Positions 11,767 through 26,502 of a stretch of DNA of 34,137 nt are shown in pieces. The stretch lies in NCBI GenBank assembly GCA_002699105.1, contig PABJ01000069.1, positions 1-34,137 of the forward strand. Reading direction: 5' to 3'. The translations under genes and the position numbers were made by a program. This stretch comes from Ectothiorhodospiraceae bacterium (GTDB lineage Bacteria; Bacteroidota; Ignavibacteria; SZUA-365; GCA-2699105). The notes under the pieces were generated by a model that was not told the DNA's origin, did not search any database, and saw nothing but the letters and a program-made list of their open reading frames with translations. Every line of letters starts with the position of its first letter. Within the stretch, counting starts at the first letter, position 1.

Positions 11767-12966
11767 ATGCCAACACCTGCGGACATATTACATGGACTCC
11801 AGCAAAAGGAAGAACGCCTGGTATGCGGCCTCATGTCGGGCACATCCGTGGATGCAGTGGATGCGGCCCTAGTTCGGATTCGCGGGAAAGCGCATGAGAC
11901 TTCGATCGAGGTCGTCTGCTGGACGGAACTCCCCTTTTCTGATGAAGTACGGAATGTCATTCTCGGCAATACCGATGTATCCACCAGCAATGTGAGCGAT
12001 ATCTGCATGCTGCAGGTCATCCTCGGACATCTCTATGCTGATGCCGTCGAGGCATGCTGCGAGGAAGCCGGTATCGATCCTGCGACGGTTGATCTCATCG
12101 GCATGCATGGGCAAACGCTGTATCATTTGCCGAATCCTGTGGCCATTGCCGAGCGAGAGGTAGCCGGGACGTTCCAGGCAGGCAGCGCTCCCGTACTTGC
12201 CTACAGAACCGGAACCCCGGTCGTATCGGATTTCAGATCGGCGGATATCGCTGCCGGCGGTCAGGGCGCACCGCTTCTTCCTTACGTGGACTACCTGCTG
12301 TTCGGCTCCGACAGTGAGCACAGGGTCCTGCTCAACATCGGCGGTATCGCAAACATCACCTGGCTTCCGCCGGATGCAGCAGAAGATCAGATCGTCGCAT
12401 TCGATTCCGGCCCGGGCAACATGGTGGTCAATGCACTCATGGAGCGCTTGTATGAACGGTCCTACGATCTCAACGGCGAGGTAGCATGTAAAGGCAGGCT
12501 GAACCAGGATCTTTTCAGCTGGATGATCGGCCATGAGTATTTCCGCCGCGCTTTACCGAAGTCGACAGGCCGGGAGGTGTTCGGAGGATCCTTTATCGAT
12601 GAGCTCCTTGAGATCGCTCGGGAGCTTGATGTCACCTCTCCCGAGGACATCATAAGCACGGCCTCCCAACTCACTGTCAAATCCATTGCAATTGCAATCG
12701 AACAGGTGACGCAAACCGCGCCGAGCTTCCGCGTGTACGCAGCCGGCGGCGGCGCAAGGAATAAGTTCTTCATGGATGGCCTGCACCACGCATTAGGACC
12801 GGGCAAAGTGCAAAATTTTGATGCACTTGGAATCTCACCAGACGCCCGGGAAGCAATAAGCTTCGCCGTGCTCGCAAACGAATGGCTTCATGGCATAAAA
12901 GCAAATCTCCCGGCCGTCACCGGAGCATCGAAAAAGGTGCTTCTCGGCAGTGTTACGATGCCGTAA
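11767..12966 (+). CDS. anmK: Anhydro-N-acetylmuramic acid kinase
   Basis: A 399-aa sugar kinase of the ASKHA fold. It opens and phosphorylates 1,6-anhydro-MurNAc in peptidoglycan recycling, giving MurNAc-6-phosphate. Diagnostic segments: GLMSGTSVDAVDAALVRI at the N-terminus (phosphate loop), GMHGQTLYHLP, VVSDFRSADIAAGGQGAPL (catalytic Asp region), NIGGIANITWLP, FDSGPGNMVVNALM, and GGGARNKFFM near the C-terminus. The start is 6 bases after the priA stop, suggesting coupled expression. No MurQ or other recycling gene is nearby. Confidence 0.95.
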   Translation: MPTPADILHGLQQKEERLVCGLMSGTSVDAVDAALVRIRGKAHETSIEVVCWTELPFSDEVRNVILGNTDVSTSNVSDICMLQVILGHLYADAVEACCEEAGIDPATVDLIGMHGQTLYHLPNPVAIAEREVAGTFQAGSAPVLAYRTGTPVVSDFRSADIAAGGQGAPLLPYVDYLLFGSDSEHRVLLNIGGIANITWLPPDAAEDQIVAFDSGPGNMVVNALMERLYERSYDLNGEVACKGRLNQDLFSWMIGHEYFRRALPKSTGREVFGGSFIDELLEIARELDVTSPEDIISTASQLTVKSIAIAIEQVTQTAPSFRVYAAGGGARNKFFMDGLHHALGPGKVQNFDALGISPDAREAISFAVLANEWLHGIKANLPAVTGASKKVLLGSVTMP

Positions 12967-13229: not shown

Positions 13230-13355
13230 CCCTGGCTGCCAGGGATGGGAGTTGTTACCCGAAAAAAACAAACCGGAGAGTACACATATTGCCCGGAGAT
13301 GCGTCAGGTCAGCGCATGCCGGGGCCATATCACACCTGTCAGGAGGGGGTTGAGT
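13230..13355 (+). promoter_or_regulatory. Structured 5' leader of nrdJ
   Basis: Three hairpins precede the gene. The first is CCCTGG/CCAGGG with a 3-base loop (13230-13244). The second has an outer stem CCCGG/CCGGG and inner stem ATGCG/CGCAT (13292-13323), extendable by ATAT/ATAT. The third is a short CCT/AGG pair (13335-13343) that touches the Shine-Dalgarno AGGAGGGGG (13341-13349). The apical loop of hairpin 2 contains CAGGT (13305-13309), complementary to ACCTG at 13334-13338 next to the ribosome site, so a pseudoknot is possible. Together they could control translation. I cannot match the leader to a known riboswitch class. The canonical cobalamin box (GCCACTG) is absent from it. Confidence 0.45.
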
Positions 13356-16300
13356 ATGAAGTTTACGCGCCGATTTACGAGCGAAGGTCAGAGCGCATAC
13401 GAGCATTTCACGTACACCAAGCGTTCGTCCGTCTTGCGCAATGCAGATGGAAGCGTGGTCTTCGAACTTCACGATATCGAAGTTCCCAGCCACTGGTCGC
13501 AAGTAGCGACTGATGTGCTTGCGCAGAAGTACTTCAGAAAGGCAGGTGTTCCCCAAAAGCACGAAGACGGCAGCCCGGTGCTCGATGAGAACGGCAACCA
13601 GGTGTACGGTTCCGAGACATCGATCAAGCAGGTTGTGCATCGCCTCGTGGGATGCTGGAAACAATGGGGCCAACGCTACGGCTACTTTGATTCGGAAGCC
13701 GACGCGGACGCATACTACGACGACATGGCCTTCACCCTCCTGCAGCAGATGGCCGCTCCCAACTCCCCGCAGTGGTTCAACACCGGCCTGCATTACGCAT
13801 ACGGTATCACCGGCCCCGCACAGGGACATCATTACGTCGATCCTGACAACGGCGAATTGAAGCGTTCGGAAGATGCATACTCGCGCCCGCAACCCCACGC
13901 ATGTTTCATCCAGTCCGTCCGCGATGACCTCGTCAATGAAGGCGGCATCTTCGATCTCGTGACCCGCGAGGCCCGCATCTTTAAGTATGGTTCCGGCACA
14001 GGCACAAACTTCAGCGCGCTGCGCGCCAAGAATGAACCGCTCTCCGGCGGCGGATTTTCCTCCGGATTGATGTCCTTCCTGAAGATTAATGACCGCGCAG
14101 CCGGTTCGATCAAATCCGGCGGCACGACGCGCAGGGCGGCCAAGATGGTCATCCTCGATATCGATCACCCGGATATTGAAGACTTCATCGACTGGAAGGT
14201 CATCGAAGAACAGAAGGTTGCAGCGCTTGTCTCGGGGGCCGCAATGAACAAGAAGCACCTGCAGTCGGTGATGAACGCAGCAATCGAGGGCGGCTCCAGC
14301 GATCCGCGCAAGAATCCCAAGCTCGAAATCACCATGAAGCGCGCGTCGCATGCAGGTGTACCGATGAATTACATCTACCGCGCAATGCAGCTCGTGGACC
14401 AGGGATACACAGAATTCGAACTGCCGCTGTTCAATACGCATTACGAAGACGAAGCCTACCTGACGGTCAGCGGTCAGAACAGCAACAACAGCGTCCGCGT
14501 AACCAACTCGTTCCTTCAGGCAGTCGACCGCGGCGATTCGTGGAACCTGACCCACAGGAAAAACGGCGAAGTCGCGAAGACCGTCGAAGCGAAAGACCTC
14601 TGGGACCGCATCGCGTATGCAGCATGGTCTTCCGCCGACCCCGGCATCCAGTACGATACGACGATCAACGACTGGCACACCTGCCACGAAGACGGCCGTA
14701 TCAACGCGAGCAATCCCTGCTCGGAATACATGTTCCTCGACGATACCGCCTGCAATCTCGCCTCGTTCAATTTGAAGTACTTCTGGAGCGAAGAGAACCA
14801 CGAATTCGAGACGGAGAAATTCCGCCATGCAGTGCGCTTGTGGACGTTGACGCTCGAAATCTCGGTGCTCATGGCGCAGTTCCCCTCCGAAGAAGTTGCG
14901 CGCAAGAGCTATGAATTCCGGACGCTCGGCCTCGGCTACGCGAACCTCGGTACCGTGCTGATGATCGCCGGTGTGCCGTACGATAGCCCGAAGGGACGCG
15001 CGATTGCTGCAGGTATCACCGCCCTCCTTACCGCCGAATCCTATGCTGCCTCAGCAGAGATTGCCGGGGATGTCGGTGCCTTCCCGCGTTACGAGCCGAA
15101 CCGCGAGCACATGCTTCGCGTCATCCGGAATCACCGGCGTGCAGCGTACAACGCCAACCCTGAGGACTACGAGAATCTCTCCGTTCCTCCGGTAGGGATC
15201 GATCCGAAGCTTTGCCCGGAACCGCTTCTCGGCGCTGCGCAGCAATCCTGGGACAGAGCGCTGGAGCTCGGCGAGCAGAACGGCTACCGCAACGCACAGG
15301 TTTCCGTCCTTGCGCCTACCGGCACGATCGGCCTCGTCATGGACTGCGATACGACCGGCGTCGAGCCAGACTTCGCAATTGTGAAGTACAAGAAGCTCGC
15401 AGGCGGCGGCTACTTCAAGATCGTGAACCAGTCGATTCCGAAAGCGCTGGAATACCTCGGCTATAGCCAGCAGCAGATCGAGGACATAGAGAAATACGTG
15501 AAGGGACACGGCACTCTTGCCGGATGCCCCGATATCAATCGCGAATCCCTGCTCAAGCGCGGCTTCAATAGCGAAGCCATCGAGAAGATCGAAGCGCAAC
15601 TGGATTCCGTCTTCGAACTCAAGTTTGCGTTCAACAAGTACGTCCTCGGCGAAGACCTTTGCTTCAAGCTTGGGTTCACCGCCGAGCAGCTCGACGATCC
15701 GTCGTTCGATATGCTCACGGCGCTGAATTTCACGTCCGAAGAGATCGACCGTGCAAACGAATACGTCTGCGGTACAATGATGATCGAAGGCGCGCCGCAT
15801 CTGCGTGCTGCCGACCTGCCGGTCTTCGACACGGCAAATAAATGCGGAAAGCGCGGCGAGCGCTATATCAAGTATGAAGGTCATATCCGCATGATGGCAG
15901 CAGTGCAGCCGTTTATCTCCGGCGCAATCTCGAAGACGATCAACATGCCGGCCCATGCAACGATAGAAGAAGTCAAGCATGCCTACAAGCTCTCCTGGCA
16001 GCTCATGCTCAAGGCAATTGCGCTCTATCGCGACGGTTCCAAACTCTCGCAGCCTCTGAACACCGTCAGCGATGCGCACGCAGAAGCCCTCATGGAGATG
16101 GGCACGGAGGACGACTTCAACGAACAGATCGGGCCGAAGGAAATCCAGGAAAAGATCGTCTACCGTGTCGAGCGCAAGAAGCTTCCGGCAAAGCGCCAGG
16201 GCTTCATCCGCGAGGCGGTGGTAGGCGGGCACAAGGTGTTCCTCCGCACCGGAGAATATAACGACGGAAAGATCGGCGAGATCTTCATCGATATGTACAA

Positions 16301-16808
16301 GGAAGGCGCATCGTACAAGGGCCTTCTGAGCTGCTTTGCGGTTCTCGCATCCAAAGCACTGCAGTACGGCGTCCCGCTGGACGAACTGGTGGATACCTTC
16401 ACGTTTACCCGCTTCGAACCCGCCGGTACCGTCGTCGGGCACGAAGCAATCAAGAATGCAACTTCCGTGCTCGACTATGTCTTCCGCGCATTGGGGTACG
16501 AATACCTCGGCAGGAAGGACTTCGTCCATGTGAAATCCGTTGATGAGACACAGGAGAAGCCGCTCACGAGCTTCAATTCACCGCCGACCCTGCCCAAACG
16601 CGCCAAGAGCAGCGCAGGCGAAGAAGCCGCACCCGAACTCGTCGCTGAGAGCAAAAAGCAGAAGAAGGACGACACCGAGTCGGTGATGATGGCCAGAGCG
16701 CAGGGCTACACGGGCGAAATGTGCAGCGCCTGCGGAAGCGCGCGCGTCAAGCGGAACGGTTCGTGCACCGTATGCGAAGATTGCGGCACAACGAGCGGGT
16801 GTTCGTAA
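13356..16808 (+). CDS. nrdJ: Vitamin B12-dependent (class II) ribonucleoside-diphosphate reductase
   Basis: A 1150-aa enzyme that reduces ribonucleotides to deoxyribonucleotides using adenosylcobalamin and works with or without oxygen. An in-frame ATG exists at 13245, but I choose 13356 because a perfect AGGAGGGGG site lies 6 bases upstream and the family usually begins MKF-RRFT. The large-subunit barrel contains Cys183 in [13 protein letters not shown] at about residue 453 (thiyl-radical region), and the substrate-loop motif APTGTIG near residue 655. The C-terminal part has a TSCPD-type segment and a zinc-ribbon tail with four Cys pairs or singles (CSACGS, CEDCG, ending SGCS), typical of long NrdJ. 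No intein is visible. It is the only RNR in the window. Confidence 0.95.
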
Positions 16809-18653: not shown

Positions 18654-18687
18654 CAAAGAAAAAGGGACACAGTTGCCTGTGTCCCTT
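18654..18687 (-). terminator. Strong terminator of the sigma factor operon
   Basis: A perfect 11-bp stem (AAGGGACACAG with CTGTGTCCCTT) with a 4-base loop lies at 18662-18687. On the minus strand it is followed by a run of T (TTTTTCTTT). It is 21 bases after the stop of the sigma factor gene and is the only strong terminator for the whole leftward run from 26502. Confidence 0.85.
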
Positions 18688-18708
18688 CCTCATAATGATC
18701 TATTGGGT

Positions 18709-19572
18709 CTAGCCGAGGTAGGAGCGGAGCTGCTTGCTTCTGCTCGCGTGGCGGAGCCGGCGGATCGCTTTTTCTTTGATCTGGCGAACGCGCTCGCGGG
18801 TAAGATTAAACTTCTCGCCAATCTCTTCGAGCGTCAGTGAATGATCGCGGTCGAGGCCGAAGTACAACCGGATAACCTCCGCCTCGCGCTCGCTGAGGCT
18901 CGCCAATGCACGCCGCACTTCCACACGGAGGGATTCGCCCATAAGCGTGGTGTCGGGGCTTGGCTGGCGGTCGTCCTGGATGACGTCGAGGAGGCGGTTG
19001 TCTTCGCCCTGCGCGAACGGTGCATCTACGGATATATGCCGGCCCGAGATCTTCAGCGTATCGGCAACTTCGAAGAGCGTCATGTCAAGCTCGCTCGCGA
19101 GCTCGCTGGCACTTGGCTCGCGCTCATAGCTCTGCTCCAATTCGCTGAACTTCTTCCCGATCTTGTTCAGCGCACCTACGCGGTTCAGCGGCAACCGGAC
19201 GATTCGGCTCTGCTCTGCCAATGCCTGCAAAATCGACTGCCTGATCCACCACACGGCGTAGGAAATAAACTTAAATCCGCGGGTCTCGTCGAAGCGCTTT
19301 GCCGCTTTGATGAGCCCGAGGTTGCCCTCGTTGATTAGATCGCCGAGGGATAGTCCCTGGTTTTGATATTGCTTTGCAACGGAGACCACAAACCGGAGGT
19401 TCGCTTTGGTGAGCTTCTCCAGTGCGCGCTGCGCGTCGGGCCCGTTGCGCTTTATTTTCCGCGCGAGTTCAATCTCTTCCTCAGGTGTCAGCAGATCCAC
19501 ACGGCCGATTTCCTGGAGGTACTTATCCAGCGACTGGCTCTCGCGGTTCGTATATTGTTTCGAAATCCTCAA
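18709..19572 (-). CDS. rpoD: Primary sigma factor (RpoD/SigA, short Bacteroidota type)
   Basis: A 287-aa housekeeping sigma factor without region 1.1, as in Bacteroidota, where it recognises TTG/TAnnTTTG promoters. Region 1.2 is at about residues 13-45 ([15 protein letters not shown]). Region 2 is at about 55-120 ([50 protein letters not shown]), region 3 about 125-200, and the region 4 helix-turn-helix near the C-terminus ([20 protein letters not shown]). The start codon appears to be TTG at 19572, with an AGAGG site about 8 bases upstream; no Met occurs in the early sequence. It lies 31 bases after the upstream EutN gene on the same strand, so it may be co-transcribed with it. Confidence 0.96.
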
Positions 19573-19603
19573 ATCTGGAACCTCTGTTTAAGGCAACAAC
19601 GCA

Positions 19604-19903
19604 TTACTTCTTTGTTGGCATTTCTTTGTTCAACTCCGGATCGACATCGATCCGGTCGACGATACCGACGATAGTGGCATCAGTGGGCGCCATTTCGGCA
19701 GGCAGTGGAATCGACGCCTCGCTTGCGGTGATATACATCACGGTCTCCCCTTCTCCTGCACCGATATTATTTACGGCTATAATCGGTTTCCCCGCATGAT
19801 TCCGGTTCGCATCGATAGGCTGAATTATTTCAAAGGAGGCATTCTGAAGGTGTTCATCCTTCACGGTAGCCCACACGGTGCCTATGATCTTCGCAAAAAA
19901 CAT
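19604..19903 (-). CDS. EutN/CcmL-family microcompartment vertex protein (BMC-P) 1
   Basis: A 99-aa protein with the Pfam EutN_CcmL fold, which forms pentamers that cap the vertices of bacterial microcompartments. Visible family features: IIGTVWATVKDEHL at the N-terminus, IIQPIDANRNHAGKPIIAVNNIGAGEGETVMYI in the middle, and TDATIVGIVDRIDV near the end. It carries the 'ITASEAS' variant of the pore-side loop rather than the GSSAR form of its neighbour. The ATG at 19903 has a GGGA-type site. It lies 95 bases downstream of the second EutN gene and 31 bases upstream of the sigma factor gene. No BMC-H hexamer or encapsulated enzyme is in the window. Confidence 0.9.
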   Translation of the reverse strand: MFFAKIIGTVWATVKDEHLQNASFEIIQPIDANRNHAGKPIIAVNNIGAGEGETVMYITASEASIPLPAEMAPTDATIVGIVDRIDVDPELNKEMPTKK

Positions 19904-19998
19904 GCGTTCCCGTTTTAGCCTTCTTTTAACATTGGTTCAGTACGAAAAAGTTTCAAAGCGCCTGAAATACGCCGCTCGGACGCAGTTGGCTGGTGATT

Positions 19999-20286
19999 TC
20001 AACCTGCCGCTTCTCCAAATACATCAAGTTTATCGACGATCGCCATCACAACGGCATCGATCGGTTTATTGTGTGTCAGCTTGGTTTGCCGGGCAGAACT
20101 CCCCTGCGCTATGAGCACAATCTCTCCAGCGCCCGCTCCGACGCTATCGACGGCAATCACAGGATTCGCTTCCTCATCGACGTCGTAGTTGAGATCAACC
20201 GGCTGAATGATGAGAATTTTCGTCCCGTTTAGACCTTCGTCCTTTCTGGTCGCCCAGACTGATCCGATAACTCTTCCGAGTGTCAT
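19999..20286 (-). CDS. EutN/CcmL-family microcompartment vertex protein (BMC-P) 2
   Basis: A 95-aa paralogue of the gene at 19604-19903 and closer to the classic sequence: RVIGSVWATRKDEGLNGTKI, then VIAVDSVGAGAGEIVLI, AQGSSARQTK, and PIDAVVMAIVDKLDV. The start is 3 bases after the stop of the PIN gene, so translation is probably coupled. Two different vertex proteins usually serve one shell with other subunits coded elsewhere. Alternatively they may form a shell-independent pentamer. Function is inferred from family only. Confidence 0.92.
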   Translation of the reverse strand: MTLGRVIGSVWATRKDEGLNGTKILIIQPVDLNYDVDEEANPVIAVDSVGAGAGEIVLIAQGSSARQTKLTHNKPIDAVVMAIVDKLDVFGEAAG

Positions 20287-20289
20287 TGA

Positions 20290-20739
20290 TTAGCCGCCGT
20301 TGATGATAATATTCGTTTGTATCGCATTCCAGCCGTCGCCCGGCTGAACCGTTGCCGCATCCAGAATCGCTAGCCCATCGAAAGCAGCGTAACGATCTGT
20401 ATCGTATGTCGCCAGCGGCAGTTTACTCAGGACGCACAGTCCGGCGATGATGCTGCTGCGGAGATCCTTCCGCGCGTCGGGAAGCTGCCGGTAGGTATCG
20501 CCGAACGTCAGCGAATACTTGTGATGAAAGCCTAACACCTTCAGACCCCATAACACGGATTCGGTATGGTAACGTTCATTTTCATTGGATGCAGCAGCGA
20601 TGCATTCGGTCGCATTTTGTACGGAAGTAAAACACATGGCTTGCGCGGCAAGCGTACGCAGCACGGATGGTTTGCCACCGTTGTGCGTCAGATAGGCCGC
20701 CAGGACGTCGGTTTCCACAAACACCTCGGCCTTATGCAC
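20290..20739 (-). CDS. PIN-domain-like protein (possible ribonuclease)
   Basis: A 149-aa protein whose order of acidic residues fits a PIN nuclease: Glu9/Asp11 in FVETDVLAAYL, Glu45 in SVQNATECIAAA, Asp92 in KDLRSSIIAGL, and Asp113/Asp115 in TYDTDRYAAF followed by ILDA. PIN proteins cut single-stranded RNA using Mg2+ or Mn2+ and are often VapC-type toxins. The start is a GTG at 20739 that overlaps the stop of the 61-aa gene by 8 bases (GTGCATAA). It runs on with 3 bases to the EutN gene. I call this PIN-like on motif pattern. The first acid is Glu, not the usual Asp, so activity is uncertain. Confidence 0.65.
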   Translation of the reverse strand: MHKAEVFVETDVLAAYLTHNGGKPSVLRTLAAQAMCFTSVQNATECIAAASNENERYHTESVLWGLKVLGFHHKYSLTFGDTYRQLPDARKDLRSSIIAGLCVLSKLPLATYDTDRYAAFDGLAILDAATVQPGDGWNAIQTNIIINGG

Positions 20740-20917
20740 TGCGCCGATCCGATCCTGATGCCAGCTCTTTTATCCGTTCGGCGTAGGAGGAATTGCGGAG
20801 TGCCCCTTCCGCGGCCAGAAACCGCTTGATCGCATCCACCGGGCAGGCTTGCCGCGCACTGATGTGCTCGGCATCGTGCGGGATGGGGTTGTCTTGTCGT
20901 TGCCGGTCTTCTGCCAT
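20732..20917 (-). CDS. Small protein overlapping the PIN gene (possible antitoxin or partner)
   Basis: A 61-aa protein starting at the ATG at 20917, MAEDRQRQDNPIPHDAEHIS and ending SGSDRRSA. It is charged and has no membrane segment. The central CPVDAIKRFLAAEGALRN and SYAERIKELAS segments look helical. Its stop overlaps the GTG start of the PIN gene, and a good promoter lies 30 bases upstream. An antitoxin before a PIN toxin would have this arrangement, but I recognise no VapB DNA-binding motif. No clear Shine-Dalgarno sequence precedes it. Confidence 0.55.
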   Translation of the reverse strand: MAEDRQRQDNPIPHDAEHISARQACPVDAIKRFLAAEGALRNSSYAERIKELASGSDRRSA

Positions 20918-20946
20918 GGTACGCCCGCGCCAAATTCGGACAAACT

Positions 20947-20977
20947 CAAATATACGGGCAACTTACCCGAATTGCAA
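20947..20977 (-). promoter_or_regulatory. Bacteroidota-type promoter for the PIN-EutN-sigma unit
   Basis: On the minus strand, TTG (20977-20975), a 20-base spacer and TATATTTG (20954-20947) match the Bacteroidota consensus TTG-N17-23-TAnnTTTG perfectly. The expected start is near 20940, about 20 bases before the ATG at 20917. A palindrome TGAGGATCCTCA (21005-21016) lies about 30 bases further upstream and overlaps the end of the preceding gene. Confidence 0.65.
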
Positions 20978-21013: not shown

Positions 21014-22852
21014 TCACACCACCTTTACGCAGTTGCCGCCGTCTTCCACGGCTTTATCAAGCACCTGGCGGGCTATGCGCTGAACTTCTTCCCGTTTCAT
21101 CCCCGGCGTTACGACACAGCCCGCGATCGAGACAGTGTAGGCGTACGAGAGCCCTTCGTCGTCGGCAGTCTGTGCGGTAATCTGCTTGCGGAGTTTTTCG
21201 CCGCGGAGGAAGGCCTCCTCGGCGTTGCTTTCAACGAGGAACATGCAAAACGAAGTCCCTCCGAACCGCCCGGCAATATCGAACGGCCGTGCAAGGGCTC
21301 GTACCGCCCCGGCAACTTTCGTCATGATCGTCTCGATTGCAACTTCGCCGTGCTTCTCGCGAATGTCGTCGCCGTTATCCAGGGCAACCTGGAAAAACAC
21401 GCCCCTGCCGTCCAGCGACGCGATGCGTTCAAATTCTTCATCCAGCCGCTGGAGCACATAGGTCCGGCTGGGCATCTGCGTATCTTCGTCGATGAGCAGG
21501 TACTTCGATGTGAGTTCGCTGAGCACGGCTACCTCAAGGTGGCGCGAAGCCAGCGTCCCGATACGGCGGAGGATGCCGAGATCGCGTTCGCCGTACTGCC
21601 CTTTCTCGCGGTACTCTACGACGATCATGCCGAGCACTTCGCGCTGACTGTAGAGCGGCAGCACGAGAAGCTCACCGCGGGATTCTATCGTCTCGCCCTC
21701 GGCAAACCGGTATTCGCGGGATTTCGGGGCTGGGAGCACTCCGCCGTTGTATGCTTCTACACCCTTTCCGAGAATGCTCCGCTCCATATTTACGATCGAT
21801 CCTTCGTTCACATACGGGAGGGAGGCCGATTTCGTTTGGCTCTTGACGGCGGTCCAGATGCGCTTGGCGCGCTGGTTCAGCAGCACTGCGATGTAATCCC
21901 AATCGAGCGAATCCATGACCGCGCGTGTTATCGCCGAAGCAATTCCGTACGTATCCATGTGCGATTCGATATAGCTCTCCATGCCATCGAGGACGTGGAG
22001 TAGATTCGCGTCGGTCTTCAGATCGAATTTCTGATTGTAGCTCTTGAGCAGCGATCCGATGACCTTCGATACGCGCGTAATCGTCCCGACGGTTTCGCTG
22101 CCGAATGCATCCGGCGCTTTGCTGTCCGCGGAGATCACGGCGATAGGTTCTCCCTGGTAAAACATCGGCACACCGATAATGGACTGGATGCCTTCCCGCG
22201 AAACGTAGTACGGCGCAACATCGAGTTCCGATGCCACGGTAAGCTGCGCAATCATTGCCGGTTCGCCGGAGACCCCGACATTGCTGATGAAGTCCGTCCC
22301 CAGAGCGAGCCGCCGCGCGGTGGTATAGTTGGAGGATTCGGTAACGAACTCCCCGATGATGATCTGACCGCGCTCCTGGTTAATCCAGTACAACCCGACG
22401 GTATGCGCCATGAGCTGTTCTTTCAGTACGCCGAGAACGGAGTGCGTCAATGCATCGAATTCCTCCTTCGGATCGTCGAAGTCGGGATTCTCGTCCGGGG
22501 CGTAGTCGGAAGGTGTTTCATGTTCGGGGGCTACCTGCGGCTCCGATGCCGGCTCAAGGTTTTCCTCGTCCAGTTCGAAGCCCGTGCTGTCCGGTGCTTC
22601 CTGTCTTGGTTCAGGCCGGGATTTTCCTGTTTCATACGTCGGCTCCGGCTTCTTTACCGGATCCGCCATTGGCTTATCGCCGGATGTGTGTTGTTCATCT
22701 TCCGATGGTGCATAGCGCAGGTAGATAACAACTGCAGATACAAGAAAGATGACGCCGGAAATGATTCGTATGACGAGACTTTCATCGAAGTAGATGAATG
22801 CTGCGATTGATGCGAATAGTCCGAGAAGAGCCGCTACAACGTATGACTTCAT
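21014..22852 (-). CDS. Membrane-anchored GAF-GAF protein with degenerate GGDEF domain
   Basis: A 612-aa protein. Two transmembrane helices (about 4-22 and 27-46) are followed by an acidic, Pro-rich linker (47-135), a GAF domain (about 140-285, with YVSREGIQSIIGVPM and PIAVISADS), and a second GAF domain (about 300-450, with LLVLPLYSQREVLGMIVVEY). A GGDEF-type C-terminal domain occupies about 455-612. The signature is GGTSF (531-535, bases 21262-21248), not GG(D/E)EF, so c-di-GMP synthesis is unlikely. A receptor, dimerisation or scaffold role is more plausible. It lies 68 bases downstream of the TPR gene on the same strand. The start at 22852 has no clear ribosome site. Confidence 0.85.
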   Translation of the reverse strand: MKSYVVAALLGLFASIAAFIYFDESLVIRIISGVIFLVSAVVIYLRYAPSEDEQHTSGDKPMADPVKKPEPTYETGKSRPEPRQEAPDSTGFELDEENLEPASEPQVAPEHETPSDYAPDENPDFDDPKEEFDALTHSVLGVLKEQLMAHTVGLYWINQERGQIIIGEFVTESSNYTTARRLALGTDFISNVGVSGEPAMIAQLTVASELDVAPYYVSREGIQSIIGVPMFYQGEPIAVISADSKAPDAFGSETVGTITRVSKVIGSLLKSYNQKFDLKTDANLLHVLDGMESYIESHMDTYGIASAITRAVMDSLDWDYIAVLLNQRAKRIWTAVKSQTKSASLPYVNEGSIVNMERSILGKGVEAYNGGVLPAPKSREYRFAEGETIESRGELLVLPLYSQREVLGMIVVEYREKGQYGERDLGILRRIGTLASRHLEVAVLSELTSKYLLIDEDTQMPSRTYVLQRLDEEFERIASLDGRGVFFQVALDNGDDIREKHGEVAIETIMTKVAGAVRALARPFDIAGRFGGTSFCMFLVESNAEEAFLRGEKLRKQITAQTADDEGLSYAYTVSIAGCVVTPGMKREEVQRIARQVLDKAVEDGGNCVKVV

Positions 22853-22920: not shown

Positions 22921-23862
22921 TCAAAGATCGGAAGGCGTTTCGCTGCCGGTTTCTCCGGGTTCCTGTTCCAGTTGGGAACGTTCATCGTCGCGAAGCATGT
23001 AATTCTCGCCCATGAATTTATCGCGCTCGTTTACCTCGGGCAGACCGAGTTCCTTCCTGAGCGTGCGAATCTGTGAGCGGATCGTCTCGATATGTTCATC
23101 GAGTTCCAGGGATTTCTGTTCCATGTCCTCGGTATCATGGATCAAGTCGTGCTGCTGCTTGACGAGTGCCCTGATCGAATGCTCGAGTGAATTCAGCAGC
23201 ACAAGTTTGCCGCGTTCTTCATCGGCCTCCTCCTGGGATTCGCGTTGTTCACCCGTCACCTGGGTATGCTCTTGCTCAGCCTTCTTGTAGATTGATGAGC
23301 GGATCTGCTTCATCTTCGCGATGCGTTCGAGGATGGGCTCGGGCGAGTCAAATCCATAGACGGTCGCGAGGCGGATATGCTCTTCCGCCTCCTCAATACG
23401 TCCGAAGACCGCCAGGACAAGCGCCAGATTGGCGTGCCCCACGGCATGATTAGGTTCAAGCTGAAGCGCCAGATCGAGATACGTTTTTGCCGTCCCCGGA
23501 TCGCTTTCCTTTAAGTGCAGCGAACCGAGATTTACGAGATAATCGGCGTTTTCGGGATCGTTCCTGTATGCGCGCTGCAGTGCTTCCGCTGCCTCCGCCG
23601 AGCGGTCCATCTTTCTGAGCAGCAGCCCCAGGTTGTTCCATGCGTCGGCAGCATCCGGACGCAGTTCAAGAGCTTGTTTCAAAGATTGAAGCGCTGCAAG
23701 AAAGTCCTCACGGTCTTCATACAAACTCGCCATGCCCATATGGGCTGCAAACTGTTCATCTTCCGAGACGACGCTATCCAGCACCTCGCCGTACAGACGG
23801 GATGCCTTCTCTGTATCGCCGCGTTCGTGTGCCTTCGCTGCCTCTGTAAGCAAATTATCCAT
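22921..23862 (-). CDS. TPR-repeat protein with C-terminal coiled coil
   Basis: A 313-aa protein with no signal peptide. About five tetratricopeptide repeats cover residues 1-190 (AAKAHERGDTEKASRLYGEV, ALELRPDAADAWNNLGLLLR, AYRNDPENADYLVNLGSLHL, ALQLEPNHAVGHANLALVLA, and AEEHIRLATVYG). A glutamine/glutamate-rich linker and a coiled coil (about 225-275, with SLELDEHIETIRSQIRTLRK) follow. TPR proteins mediate protein contacts; the partner is unknown. Its ATG overlaps the stop of the class D beta-lactamase gene by one base (TAATG), so the two are translationally coupled. It is 68 bases from the GAF/GGDEF gene downstream. Confidence 0.85.
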   Translation of the reverse strand: MDNLLTEAAKAHERGDTEKASRLYGEVLDSVVSEDEQFAAHMGMASLYEDREDFLAALQSLKQALELRPDAADAWNNLGLLLRKMDRSAEAAEALQRAYRNDPENADYLVNLGSLHLKESDPGTAKTYLDLALQLEPNHAVGHANLALVLAVFGRIEEAEEHIRLATVYGFDSPEPILERIAKMKQIRSSIYKKAEQEHTQVTGEQRESQEEADEERGKLVLLNSLEHSIRALVKQQHDLIHDTEDMEQKSLELDEHIETIRSQIRTLRKELGLPEVNERDKFMGENYMLRDDERSQLEQEPGETGSETPSDL

Positions 23863-24674
23863 TACAATCGATGCGGTTCCTTGCCTTTAAGTACGTGTAA
23901 ACGGTGCAGGACTTTTATAGTGATCTCTTCAGCTACTCTGCCGGTCGCCTCCGGACCGAGAATATTCGTAACGAAGATATGGTACTCGCCGTTTCTTTCT
24001 ACCCACCCAACATACCAGCCAATCCGTTCAGCGGTGCGAAGCGAGGTCCCGGTCTTGCCGCAGAAGTACCCGCCTTCCACTGTGCCCCGTGGAAAGATTT
24101 CATTGCGGAACGTATCCATTGTCTCCCTCGAAAACGGCAGCTCATTGAGCGCCAGCCGAACAAGGAAATCCCACTGCTGGTTCGCCGAGATCTTCAGACC
24201 CTTTTCGAGCCAGAACGTTGTAACGTCGTCTCCTATATTCTTATCGCCGTAGTTCAGCTTGTTCAGCCATTCCTGCATATTCTCTTTGCCGACCCGCCGT
24301 GCCATCTCCTGATAGAACCACACGGCCGAATGCTTGAACGCCATCCGCAGGTTGTGGTCCTGGTTCCACTTATCGTAGAACCGCTTCTCGCCGTCCCATT
24401 CCAGCATTTCATCCGGGCCGGAGATCGCGCCGGATTCGAGAGCTATCATTGAGTTAGGGATTTTGAACGTGGAGCACGGACTATAGGCTTTCATCGCCTG
24501 GAGGGAGCCGTCGGGGAGCGTATCCGTGTACATGTGCAGCATCTTGGCCTGCAAGTCGTAATGCAGGAACGAATAAGTATAGTCTCCGAACAGGTCCCGC
24601 AGTTCCTCCGCCTTCTGCGCCGAGGCCTGTCCGGTGAATAGCAGGACTGCCAGTATGCTAATCAAACGATACAT
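23862..24674 (-). CDS. Class D (OXA-type) serine beta-lactamase family protein
   Basis: A 270-aa periplasmic protein with signal peptide MYRLISILAVLLFTGQASAQ. Active-site elements of class D enzymes are all present: STFK at 68-71 (Ser68 nucleophile, Lys71 likely carbamylated), SAV at 116-118, YGD at 142-144 (YGN is usual; the third position is Asp here), FWLE near 155, and KTG at 207-209. The LPFS segment also fits. Family members hydrolyse beta-lactam rings, but the substrate range cannot be predicted. A GTG at 24686 is possible, but AGGAGG immediately precedes it, so I choose the ATG at 24674. The gene overlaps the TonB receptor by 17 bases and the TPR gene by one. Confidence 0.9.
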   Translation of the reverse strand: MYRLISILAVLLFTGQASAQKAEELRDLFGDYTYSFLHYDLQAKMLHMYTDTLPDGSLQAMKAYSPCSTFKIPNSMIALESGAISGPDEMLEWDGEKRFYDKWNQDHNLRMAFKHSAVWFYQEMARRVGKENMQEWLNKLNYGDKNIGDDVTTFWLEKGLKISANQQWDFLVRLALNELPFSRETMDTFRNEIFPRGTVEGGYFCGKTGTSLRTAERIGWYVGWVERNGEYHIFVTNILGPEATGRVAEEITIKVLHRLHVLKGKEPHRL

Positions 24675-26502
24675 TGTATGATACACCTCCTTGTATCCAT
24701 CTGCCGGGCATTGGGAGCGTGCCTATTTCGGTGTAGGAAACGTTTGTCAGGTTCGTTGCCGATAGGAATGTACTCACATCGCCAAAGCTCTTCGTAAGCC
24801 GCAAATCCAGTATGACGTATGCGTCCTGCTGATCTTCGCGCTTGAGAATACGTACTTGCCACGATGGCAGCAATCCGAGCGGCAATACTTGTACAATATT
24901 CATAACAAACTGATGACGCAAGTGATCGAGTATGTATTTCGACTCGGTTGCCGGTACCGAAAAATCGGAAGCAAGGTAGGTGTAGCCTAGTCTCACGCAG
25001 AATATAAACGGTGATATTGCATCCGGTAGTGTTGCCGATTCCACGCTGGTCTCGATTCCCCATGTATTCACGTTGGTAGCGTTCACAACCTGCCAGGGCG
25101 CCTGCTCCGATTCCCGAACCCAGTCAATCAGGTTCTCAGCCTCACGGCGAAAAACCGTCACGCTCCCTCTGAGCAGATGCCATTCGCTCCTAAGACCGAG
25201 TTCATAGGTCCAGGCGCGTTCCGGTTCAAGGTCCGGATTGCCGAGATTTGCCGGATCTTCGTAGTACAGTTCTGTATATGTGGGAATGCGGAAGGCACGG
25301 CTGACCGACCCGTGGATGCGCAGCGCATCGCTGAAAGCATACCCTGCACTTACACCCGGCGAATAGTCCCAGCCGAAGGAATCGAACTTGTTGGCATAGA
25401 GCCCGAAGTCCAGCACGGTTTCTTCAAATGGCTGCACTCTATGCTCTGCAAATATGCCGCCGATGGTCCGCTCGTGAATGCCCAGGTTGGTACTGTTGAT
25501 AGCCTGCAGCTCGGCTTCCGTACCGAGGGCTGTGGTGCCGAGTCCCCAATCGAACCGCGCGCCATACCGGAAATTGTACTTATTCGTGTTGTGGACGTTT
25601 CTGTAGAAATCCGGATCGTCGCGCCGCAGTAAAAACTCGTCGCTGCCGTTGCACCAAGCGAGATCGATGTGTGAAAGCCATCCGTCATGGTCGATCTCCC
25701 CGCCAAGTGCCGCGAACCCGGTTTTCACGGCTTCCCATTGATTGGGAAACCGCGAGCTATAGAATCCGTTGGCACCGAATTCTTTATCGGTATACCCCGC
25801 TTTCAAATCGAACACAGCACTCGATACTGGGAGCCGCAGACTGTATGATGCTGTATTCGTCCGGTAGTCGGTATTCGCGCGGTATCCATCGGAAGATTCG
25901 CGCTGGATCGTGATGCGCTGCTGCAAACCGCCTATGGGCAAGGATGCTGAAGCCATGCCTTCGAACAGCCCATACTCGCCGCCGCTTGCGCGGAACCGCA
26001 AGTTCGCATCATGCATGTTGCGGGTAATGATGTTGATCGCGCCGCTGAATGCATTCGCACCAAATCCTCGCGAACCGGGGCCGCGAAGGACTTCGATGCG
26101 CTGGACATCATCCATCGGGACGGGGAGGGATAGGGTATTATGCCCGGTCTGCGGATCGTTGACGGGGACGCCATCGAGCATGACCAGAGTTTGTTCGAAT
26201 CCCCCGCCGCGGAGAGCGATATCTGCCTGCACACCGTTCGGGCCGCGACGACGGATGTCCACGCTGGGAACGCTGGCCAGGACGCCTTGAAGCGAATAAT
26301 CCGGCGAGGAAGCGATCTCTGCCCTGGTTATGACCTCGATGTTCCGGGTAAGCTGCGAACGCTGAACCGGCAACCTGCCGGCGGTAATGATGATCTCTGG
26401 GAGGTTGTATTCGGTGGTATCAGATTGCTCCTGCGCGGGAAGCACCGGCGCAAAAGCAAGAAAAAGCAACGCTAGGTGCGCCGCCCGGTTGTTGAAATTC
26501 AT
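24658..26502 (-). CDS. TonB-dependent outer membrane receptor (BtuB/FepA-like)
   Basis: A 614-aa outer membrane importer. A signal peptide (about 1-24, ending PVLPAQ) is followed by a TonB-box-like/plug region: EIIITAGRLPVQRS near 35-50 and the plug domain to about 155 (VASVPSVDIRRRGPNGVQA, ALRGGGFEQTLVMLDGVPVN, VEVLRGPGSRGFGANAFSGA with a similar Ile). The 22-strand barrel then fills residues 160-614 (RAFRIPTYTELYY, LEPERAWTYELGLRSE). It lacks the carboxypeptidase-like domain of SusC-type receptors. Size and sequence style recall BtuB and siderophore receptors; substrate unknown. It is the first gene of the leftward run. Confidence 0.92.
   Translation of the reverse strand: MNFNNRAAHLALLFLAFAPVLPAQEQSDTTEYNLPEIIITAGRLPVQRSQLTRNIEVITRAEIASSPDYSLQGVLASVPSVDIRRRGPNGVQADIALRGGGFEQTLVMLDGVPVNDPQTGHNTLSLPVPMDDVQRIEVLRGPGSRGFGANAFSGAINIITRNMHDANLRFRASGGEYGLFEGMASASLPIGGLQQRITIQRESSDGYRANTDYRTNTASYSLRLPVSSAVFDLKAGYTDKEFGANGFYSSRFPNQWEAVKTGFAALGGEIDHDGWLSHIDLAWCNGSDEFLLRRDDPDFYRNVHNTNKYNFRYGARFDWGLGTTALGTEAELQAINSTNLGIHERTIGGIFAEHRVQPFEETVLDFGLYANKFDSFGWDYSPGVSAGYAFSDALRIHGSVSRAFRIPTYTELYYEDPANLGNPDLEPERAWTYELGLRSEWHLLRGSVTVFRREAENLIDWVRESEQAPWQVVNATNVNTWGIETSVESATLPDAISPFIFCVRLGYTYLASDFSVPATESKYILDHLRHQFVMNIVQVLPLGLLPSWQVRILKREDQQDAYVILDLRLTKSFGDVSTFLSATNLTNVSYTEIGTLPMPGRWIQGGVSYNVSFD

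What the first reader, a model, noticed from the sequence alone, without database searches (positions are those of the whole stretch)
18654..20977. Two microcompartment vertex proteins and a PIN protein in one unit with the primary sigma factor
Seen: a 61-aa gene, a PIN-like gene, two EutN/CcmL genes and the short RpoD are all on the minus strand. They have 8-base overlap, 3-, 95- and 31-base gaps, a perfect Bacteroidota promoter upstream (20947-20977) and one strong terminator at the end. Known: EutN/CcmL proteins cap microcompartment vertices and normally sit with BMC-H genes and enzymes; none is present here. Inference: shell vertex production may be tied to growth via the housekeeping sigma factor, or these pentamers have a non-shell role. 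PIN and the 61-aa protein may be part of the same unit.
Basis: partly seen in the sequence, partly recalled or inferred. Interest (0 to 1): 0.7.

Follow-up and report, generated by a model that had tools for sequence, protein, structure and literature searches.

The report
Dispersed nucleoside-sugar organelle genes beside rpoD
The two shell-corner genes beside the main sigma factor belong to a real but scattered bacterial microcompartment; in related bacteria its other pieces point to breakdown of DNA-derived sugar, and its genes sit among growth genes instead of in a catabolic operon.

Summary
In detail: ORF61, PIN, two EutN/CcmL (BMC-P) genes and rpoD form one minus-strand unit with the stated gaps, one perfect Bacteroidota-type promoter and a strong terminator. 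The idea that the pair is isolated is wrong. The same 74%-complete genome encodes two BMC-H, a PduT-like BMC-T, a third BMC-P, a PduS-like protein and an acetylating acetaldehyde dehydrogenase with an encapsulation-peptide-like tail, on separate contigs among housekeeping genes. The order GGDEF-deoB-(PIN)-BMC-P-BMC-P-rpoD recurs across Ignavibacteria and reaches Calditrichota. All 21 relatives with BMC-P have BMC-H; none of 14 without does. BMC+ relatives also carry DeoC with a targeting-like N-terminus and an extended RpiB; in Planctomycetota and Gemmatimonadota the orthologous BMC-P triplet sits beside DeoC and nucleoside-catabolism genes. So this is a FRAG-type (fragmented) shell with SPU-like cargo, a link not stated in the 2021 catalogue. 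PIN is VapC-like and also sits beside rpoD in shell-less genomes: a bystander. Caveats: deoB and deoC were not found in the window's own assembly, its RpiB copy looks decayed, and growth-linked expression is inferred from gene position only.

The parts
18658..18691 (-). intrinsic terminator after rpoD
   Evidence: fold -29.2 kcal/mol, z -6.6
18709..19572 (-). rpoD, primary sigma factor, 287 aa, TTG start
   Evidence: single copy at E<=1e-60; 75-88% identical in relatives
19604..19903 (-). BMC-P B (EutN/CcmL), 99 aa
   Evidence: PF03319 91 bits; clade B in the BMC-P tree
19999..20286 (-). BMC-P A (EutN/CcmL), 95 aa; closest solved chain is 5v74 (E 2.4e-21)
   Evidence: PF03319 103 bits; clade A
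20290..20739 (-). PIN-domain (VapC-like) protein, 149 aa, active site incomplete; probably a bystander
   Evidence: AlphaFold2 pLDDT 90.9, Foldseek to VapC structures, alignments
20732..20917 (-). ORF61; C-terminus resembles the small ORF before PIN in relatives (possible antitoxin remnant)
   Evidence: no Pfam or NCBIfam hit
20947..20977 (-). Bacteroidota-type promoter TTG-N20-TATATTTG
   Evidence: only zero-mismatch match in the window
21014..22852 (-). GAF-GGDEF protein, conserved upstream neighbour of the unit (in most BMC+ relatives deoB lies between it and PIN/BMC-P)
   Evidence: Pfam; maps

Best explanation
The two EutN/CcmL proteins are pentameric vertex proteins of a genuine microcompartment whose shell genes are dispersed over the chromosome (FRAG-type) and sit inside housekeeping operons. 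In relatives with the same shell, the cargo is a sugar-phosphate (SPU-like) pathway: DeoB makes (deoxy)ribose-5-phosphate, DeoC with an N-terminal targeting-like helix splits deoxyribose-5-phosphate inside the shell into glyceraldehyde-3-phosphate and acetaldehyde, an acetylating aldehyde dehydrogenase with a C-terminal targeting-like helix makes acetyl-CoA, and PduS with the PduT-like BMC-T probably carries electrons out. The BMC-P pair is made with rpoD because both belong to an old linkage group (GGDEF-deoB-PIN-BMC-P-BMC-P-rpoD), which implies housekeeping-type rather than substrate-induced expression. Shown: genes, domains, synteny, co-occurrence, conserved terminal extensions. Inferred: encapsulation, substrate, electron export, growth-linked expression. 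In the window's own lineage the shell set, the aldehyde dehydrogenase and PduS are present, but deoB and deoC were not found.
For: Same genome: BMC-H x2 and BMC-T, third BMC-P, acetylating acetaldehyde dehydrogenase with EP-like C-terminus, PduS-like protein. BMC-P and PF00936 co-occur in 21 of 21 genomes and are both absent in 14 of 14. The aldehyde dehydrogenase is in 14 of 14 BMC+ and 0 of 7 BMC- genomes. N-extended DeoC in BMC+ relatives, not in the BMC- genomes examined. N-extended RpiB in 14 of 14 other BMC+ genomes. deoB-BMC-P-BMC-P-rpoD synteny. Orthologous BMC-P triplet beside DeoC, RpiB, cytidine deaminase, uridine or thymidine phosphorylase in other phyla.
Against: In the window's own genome deoB is absent from its slot and not found, deoC is not found by two models, and the extended RpiB has lost key motifs. 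The helices are only modestly amphipathic sequence by sequence. BMC-P-rpoD linkage is looser in Rhodothermales-type loci (2.8-5.1 kb) and absent in Planctomycetota-type loci. No expression data.
Confidence: 0.72

Rival explanations
1. In the window's own lineage the shell and acetylating aldehyde dehydrogenase are kept for another acetaldehyde source; the sugar-phosphate steps have been lost, so the organelle is a repurposed acetaldehyde metabolosome.
For: deoB missing from its conserved slot, deoC not found, RpiB copy lacks the SDH, catalytic-loop and REHN motifs, while the shell, aldehyde dehydrogenase and PduS remain.
Against: The assembly is only 74% complete, so a single missing gene is expected; Kryptonia-like f18 genomes lack deoB yet keep extended DeoC and RpiB.
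Confidence: 0.3
2. The BMC-P-rpoD linkage is a frozen ancestral neighbourhood without regulatory meaning: rpoD and BMC-P are transcribed together at most by accident.
For: GGDEF-rpoD, GGDEF-deoB-rpoD and PIN-rpoD arrangements exist without BMC-P, so rpoD is expressed without the pair; rpoD is kilobases away in Rhodothermales-type loci.
Against: Short or overlapping BMC-P-rpoD junctions in many genera; only one promoter match on the minus strand of the unit.
Confidence: 0.45
3. The EutN-fold pentamers have a non-shell role tied to the sigma factor.
For: Only the adjacency to rpoD.
Against: Strict co-occurrence with BMC-H, three orthologous BMC-P clades shared with loci carrying BMC cargo in other phyla, and conserved rpoD neighbourhoods that lack BMC-P.
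Confidence: 0.05

Closest known systems
FRAG-type BMCs (Sutter, Melnicki and Kerfeld 2021, PMC8217296)
   Same: Shell genes dispersed over several genomic places, three BMC-P, found in Ignavibacteriae, Gemmatimonadetes and Planctomycetes
   Different: The catalogue gives FRAG no signature enzyme or function; here EP-like DeoC, extended RpiB and acetylating aldehyde dehydrogenase are tied to it, and the deoB-BMC-P-rpoD operon is described
SPU (sugar phosphate utilisation) BMC
   Same: Same signature enzymes in BMC+ relatives: DeoC (PF01791) and RpiB (PF02502), with an acetaldehyde-type aldehyde dehydrogenase
   Different: No single main locus in Ignavibacteria; cargo and shell scattered in housekeeping operons; extended RpiB has Cys-to-Asp at the catalytic loop
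HO BMC of Haliangium ochraceum
   Same: BMC-P A is closest among solved chains to 5v74, a BMC-P which from background knowledge is from the H. ochraceum shell; BMC-P triplet; PMC8217296 notes HO genomes with DeoC elsewhere bearing an EP-like N-terminus
   Different: HO has a main shell locus; here shell genes are dispersed and linked to rpoD
Pdu/Eut metabolosomes (PduS-PduT)
   Same: PduT-like BMC-T next to PduS-like protein; EutE-type acetylating aldehyde dehydrogenase
   Different: No PduL except in G026, no signature dehydratase or ammonia-lyase seen near the shell genes, no inducible operon
VapBC toxin-antitoxin (PIN/ORF61)
   Same: PIN fold matched to VapC; short ORF overlaps it upstream
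   Different: Active-site acids incomplete; ORF61 has no recognised antitoxin domain; conserved chromosomal place beside rpoD

Membership tests
Functional BMC shell | BMC-H/BMC-T (PF00936) and BMC-P (PF03319) in one genome | tested here: met
FRAG BMC | Shell genes at several separate genomic places | tested here: met
   four contigs in G000; separate places in relatives
FRAG BMC | BMC-P triplet | tested here: met
   three BMC-P in G000 and most BMC+ relatives; three clades
FRAG BMC | FRAG1-7 assignment by the catalogue's own shell-protein HMMs | not testable with these tools
   HMM set not held
SPU BMC | DeoC (PF01791) cargo | tested here: inconclusive
   met with N-terminal extension in BMC+ relatives; not found in the 74%-complete G000
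SPU BMC | RpiB (PF02502) cargo | tested here: inconclusive
   N-extended RpiB in 14 of 14 other BMC+ genomes; G000 copy retained but degenerate
SPU BMC | Single main locus with BMC-H, BMC-P and enzymes | tested here: not met
   dispersed in Ignavibacteria; hence described as SPU-like, not filed as SPU
Metabolosome core | Acetylating aldehyde dehydrogenase with encapsulation peptide | tested here: met
   TIGR02518 571 bits (curated cut-off 620), conserved EP-like C-terminus; encapsulation itself untested
VapBC | PIN fold | tested here: met
VapBC | Intact acidic active site | tested here: not met
   RSS in place of RDA and Glu for the first Asp in the window protein

The most novel reading that the evidence does not exclude
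A housekeeping, growth-linked microcompartment: its vertex proteins are co-transcribed with the primary sigma factor and its other shell and cargo genes sit in growth and stress operons (relA/spoT-ruvX-BMC-H, valS- or folD-like-deoC), so cells build it during ordinary growth to recycle DNA-derived deoxyribose. This would give the unassigned FRAG class a function.
Probability: 0.35. Interest if true: 0.78.

Novelty: new variant of a known kind. Interest (0 to 1): 0.62.

Why it matters
FRAG microcompartments were catalogued in 2021 without a signature enzyme or function. Tying their shell to DeoC with a targeting-like extension, an extended RpiB and an acetaldehyde dehydrogenase across phyla makes a concrete, testable assignment (deoxyribose and pentose phosphate catabolism). 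The conserved deoB-BMC-P-rpoD unit raises the question whether some microcompartments are housekeeping structures, unlike the inducible Pdu and Eut organelles.

Tried and rejected
Non-shell pentamer role: rejected on strict co-occurrence with BMC-H. PIN/ORF61 as part of the organelle: rejected, PIN occurs beside rpoD without BMC-P and BMC-P without PIN. The phosphohexomutase next to the third BMC-P as a phosphopentomutase substitute: its best model is phosphoglucosamine mutase, dropped. PduL as phosphotransacylase: only in G026, in a separate locus. The aldehyde dehydrogenase 2.5 kb from BMC-H on C80: a different PF00171 subgroup that also matches in BMC- genomes, set aside. ORF61 has no Pfam or NCBIfam hit. 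No paper assigning FRAG a function was found, but subscription papers and supplements could not be searched.

Full report
OBSERVATION. The five genes, their gaps, the promoter and the terminator are as described. RpoD is the only match at E<=1e-60 in the genome and is the primary sigma factor. Both EutN proteins score 91-103 bits against PF03319. The missing context is that the window is one contig of a 3.2-Mb, 208-contig genome estimated 74% complete.

THE SHELL IS ELSEWHERE IN THE SAME GENOME. PF00936 finds two adjacent BMC-H genes on C80 (L008:12004-12288 and 12313-12837, EutM-like) and a tandem-domain BMC-T on C77 (L010:7506-8054, PduT-like). A third BMC-P lies on C152 between a GlmM-like mutase and a gene that reads as enolase. 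None lies beside BMC signature enzymes. This fits the FRAG architecture of Sutter et al. 2021: shell genes at up to six places, a BMC-P triplet, Ignavibacteriae among the hosts, no signature enzyme (PMC8217296). Contig lengths of several relatives equal those of public Ignavibacteria and Melioribacter records, so the window's class is most likely Ignavibacteria (inference).

CO-OCCURRENCE. Among the window's genome and 60 relatives, 21 have BMC-P, usually an adjacent pair plus one elsewhere. All 21 have PF00936 and none of 14 tested genomes without BMC-P has it. The sampled order-mates (families f2, f3) have no BMC-P.

GENE ORDER. Around the pair, relatives show rpoA-rplQ-engB-GGDEF-deoB-small ORF-PIN-BMC-P A-BMC-P B-rpoD-lipoprotein, with parts missing in some families. 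EutB-rpoD gaps are -4 to 108 bp, with 4-base overlaps in G023 and G050. In 80 public loci found with the EutA profile, rpoD follows within about 0.6 kb in 51 (hand count), including Kryptonia, Thermochlorobacteriaceae and Calditrichota; in 10 mostly Rhodothermales-type loci rpoD is 2.8-5.1 kb downstream, usually with deoB-A-B still together; in 8 mostly Planctomycetota loci A, B and C sit with DeoC. These 80 are the best matches, so the sample leans to close relatives. In shell-less relatives the neighbourhood persists without BMC-P: GGDEF-rpoD, GGDEF-PIN-rpoD, PIN-rpoD, GGDEF-deoB-rpoD. BMC-P was therefore probably ancestral and lost, and PIN is not tied to it.

CARGO. DeoC in BMC+ relatives has about 60 extra N-terminal residues: a short helix-like stretch, a Cys/Gly-rich linker and a conserved AVKNII..GAERI segment before a full TIGR00126 core. 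The shell-less genomes examined have a plain 214-230 aa DeoC or an E. coli-like one with an unrelated N-terminus. An acetylating acetaldehyde dehydrogenase (TIGR02518, 571 bits for G000, under the curated 620; closest solved chain 3k9d, E 2.4e-138) is in 14 of 14 BMC+ and 0 of 7 BMC- genomes and ends in a conserved linker and G.GI(S/T)EEEI.KII.EF helix. An RpiB with a 60-90 residue N-terminal domain (K.LITE..I......ITP.A.D) is in 14 of 14 other BMC+ genomes; the shell-less RpiBs examined start at the core. A PduS-like gene sits next to BMC-T in 11 genomes and one exists in G000, on another contig; G016, G049 and G058 lack both BMC-T and PduS. DeoC plus PF02502 is the SPU signature in PMC8217296.

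CROSS-PHYLUM SUPPORT. A tree of 80 BMC-P rows gives three groups A, B and C, each on one side of a branch and each including Planctomycetota and Gemmatimonadota members (few columns, inner branching weak, support for A 95/54). In those phyla A-RpiB-B-C-DeoC lie together (L169, L195), with a uridine-phosphorylase-like gene (L169), or A-B-C-DeoC with cytidine deaminase and thymidine phosphorylase (L210). This independently points to nucleoside-derived sugar.

PIN/ORF61. AlphaFold2 gives a confident PIN fold (pLDDT 90.9) that matches VapC structures. The window copy has RSS for the RDA motif and Glu for the first Asp. Relatives have a 48-97 aa ORF before PIN with a C-terminal motif resembling ORF61. 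A decayed VapBC-like pair is the likeliest reading.

MECHANISM AND LIMITS. Likely flow: nucleosides to (deoxy)ribose-1-phosphate, DeoB to the 5-phosphate, DeoC in the shell to acetaldehyde plus glyceraldehyde-3-phosphate, aldehyde dehydrogenase to acetyl-CoA, electrons out by PduT/PduS. Encapsulation and flux are inferred. In the window's own lineage deoB is missing from its slot, deoC was not found by two models, and the RpiB copy has lost key motifs. Incompleteness may explain deoC; a repurposed acetaldehyde organelle is the rival. Growth coupling is suggested by gene positions only. The per-sequence amphipathicity test is modest; the argument rests on conservation and on presence only where the shell is present.

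Noticed in passing
L256:2495-3175 (G000:C40) and extended RpiBs of relatives: All N-extended RpiBs aligned have Asp in place of the catalytic-loop Cys (MID.. for VCG..); the G000 copy has also lost the SDH and REHN motifs, and like relatives it lies next to a gene that reads as a mannose-1-phosphate guanylyltransferase.
   Followed up: partly
L008:12313-12837 and the second BMC-H of relatives: The second BMC-H of the pair carries a long C-terminal extension (protein 136-274 aa) with no Pfam match outside the BMC domain.
   Followed up: no
L078, L080, L082-L086, L096: In Melioribacter- and Ignavibacterium-type genomes the BMC-H pair lies just downstream of a RelA/SpoT-family gene (TIGR00691, 727 bits) and a RuvX-like gene, and upstream of a YbbR-like gene.
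   Followed up: partly
window 13245-16808: B12-dependent ribonucleotide reductase (1868 bits) downstream of rpoD on the other strand; its relatives also lie near rpoD in four f13 genomes and near DeoC in G016 and G044.
   Followed up: partly
window 23862-24686: Class D beta-lactamase-like gene (221 bits, curated cut-off 250) two genes upstream of the GGDEF gene.
   Followed up: no
L111 (G026:C45:465000-484000): G026 has its BMC-P genes in a compact locus with PduL, an aldehyde dehydrogenase, BMC-H and a class II aldolase, besides the dispersed BMC-H pair and BMC-T.
   Followed up: no
L218 (G022): In a relative without BMC-P, deoB between the GGDEF gene and rpoD looks broken (two partial matches, 181 and 56 aa).
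   Followed up: no
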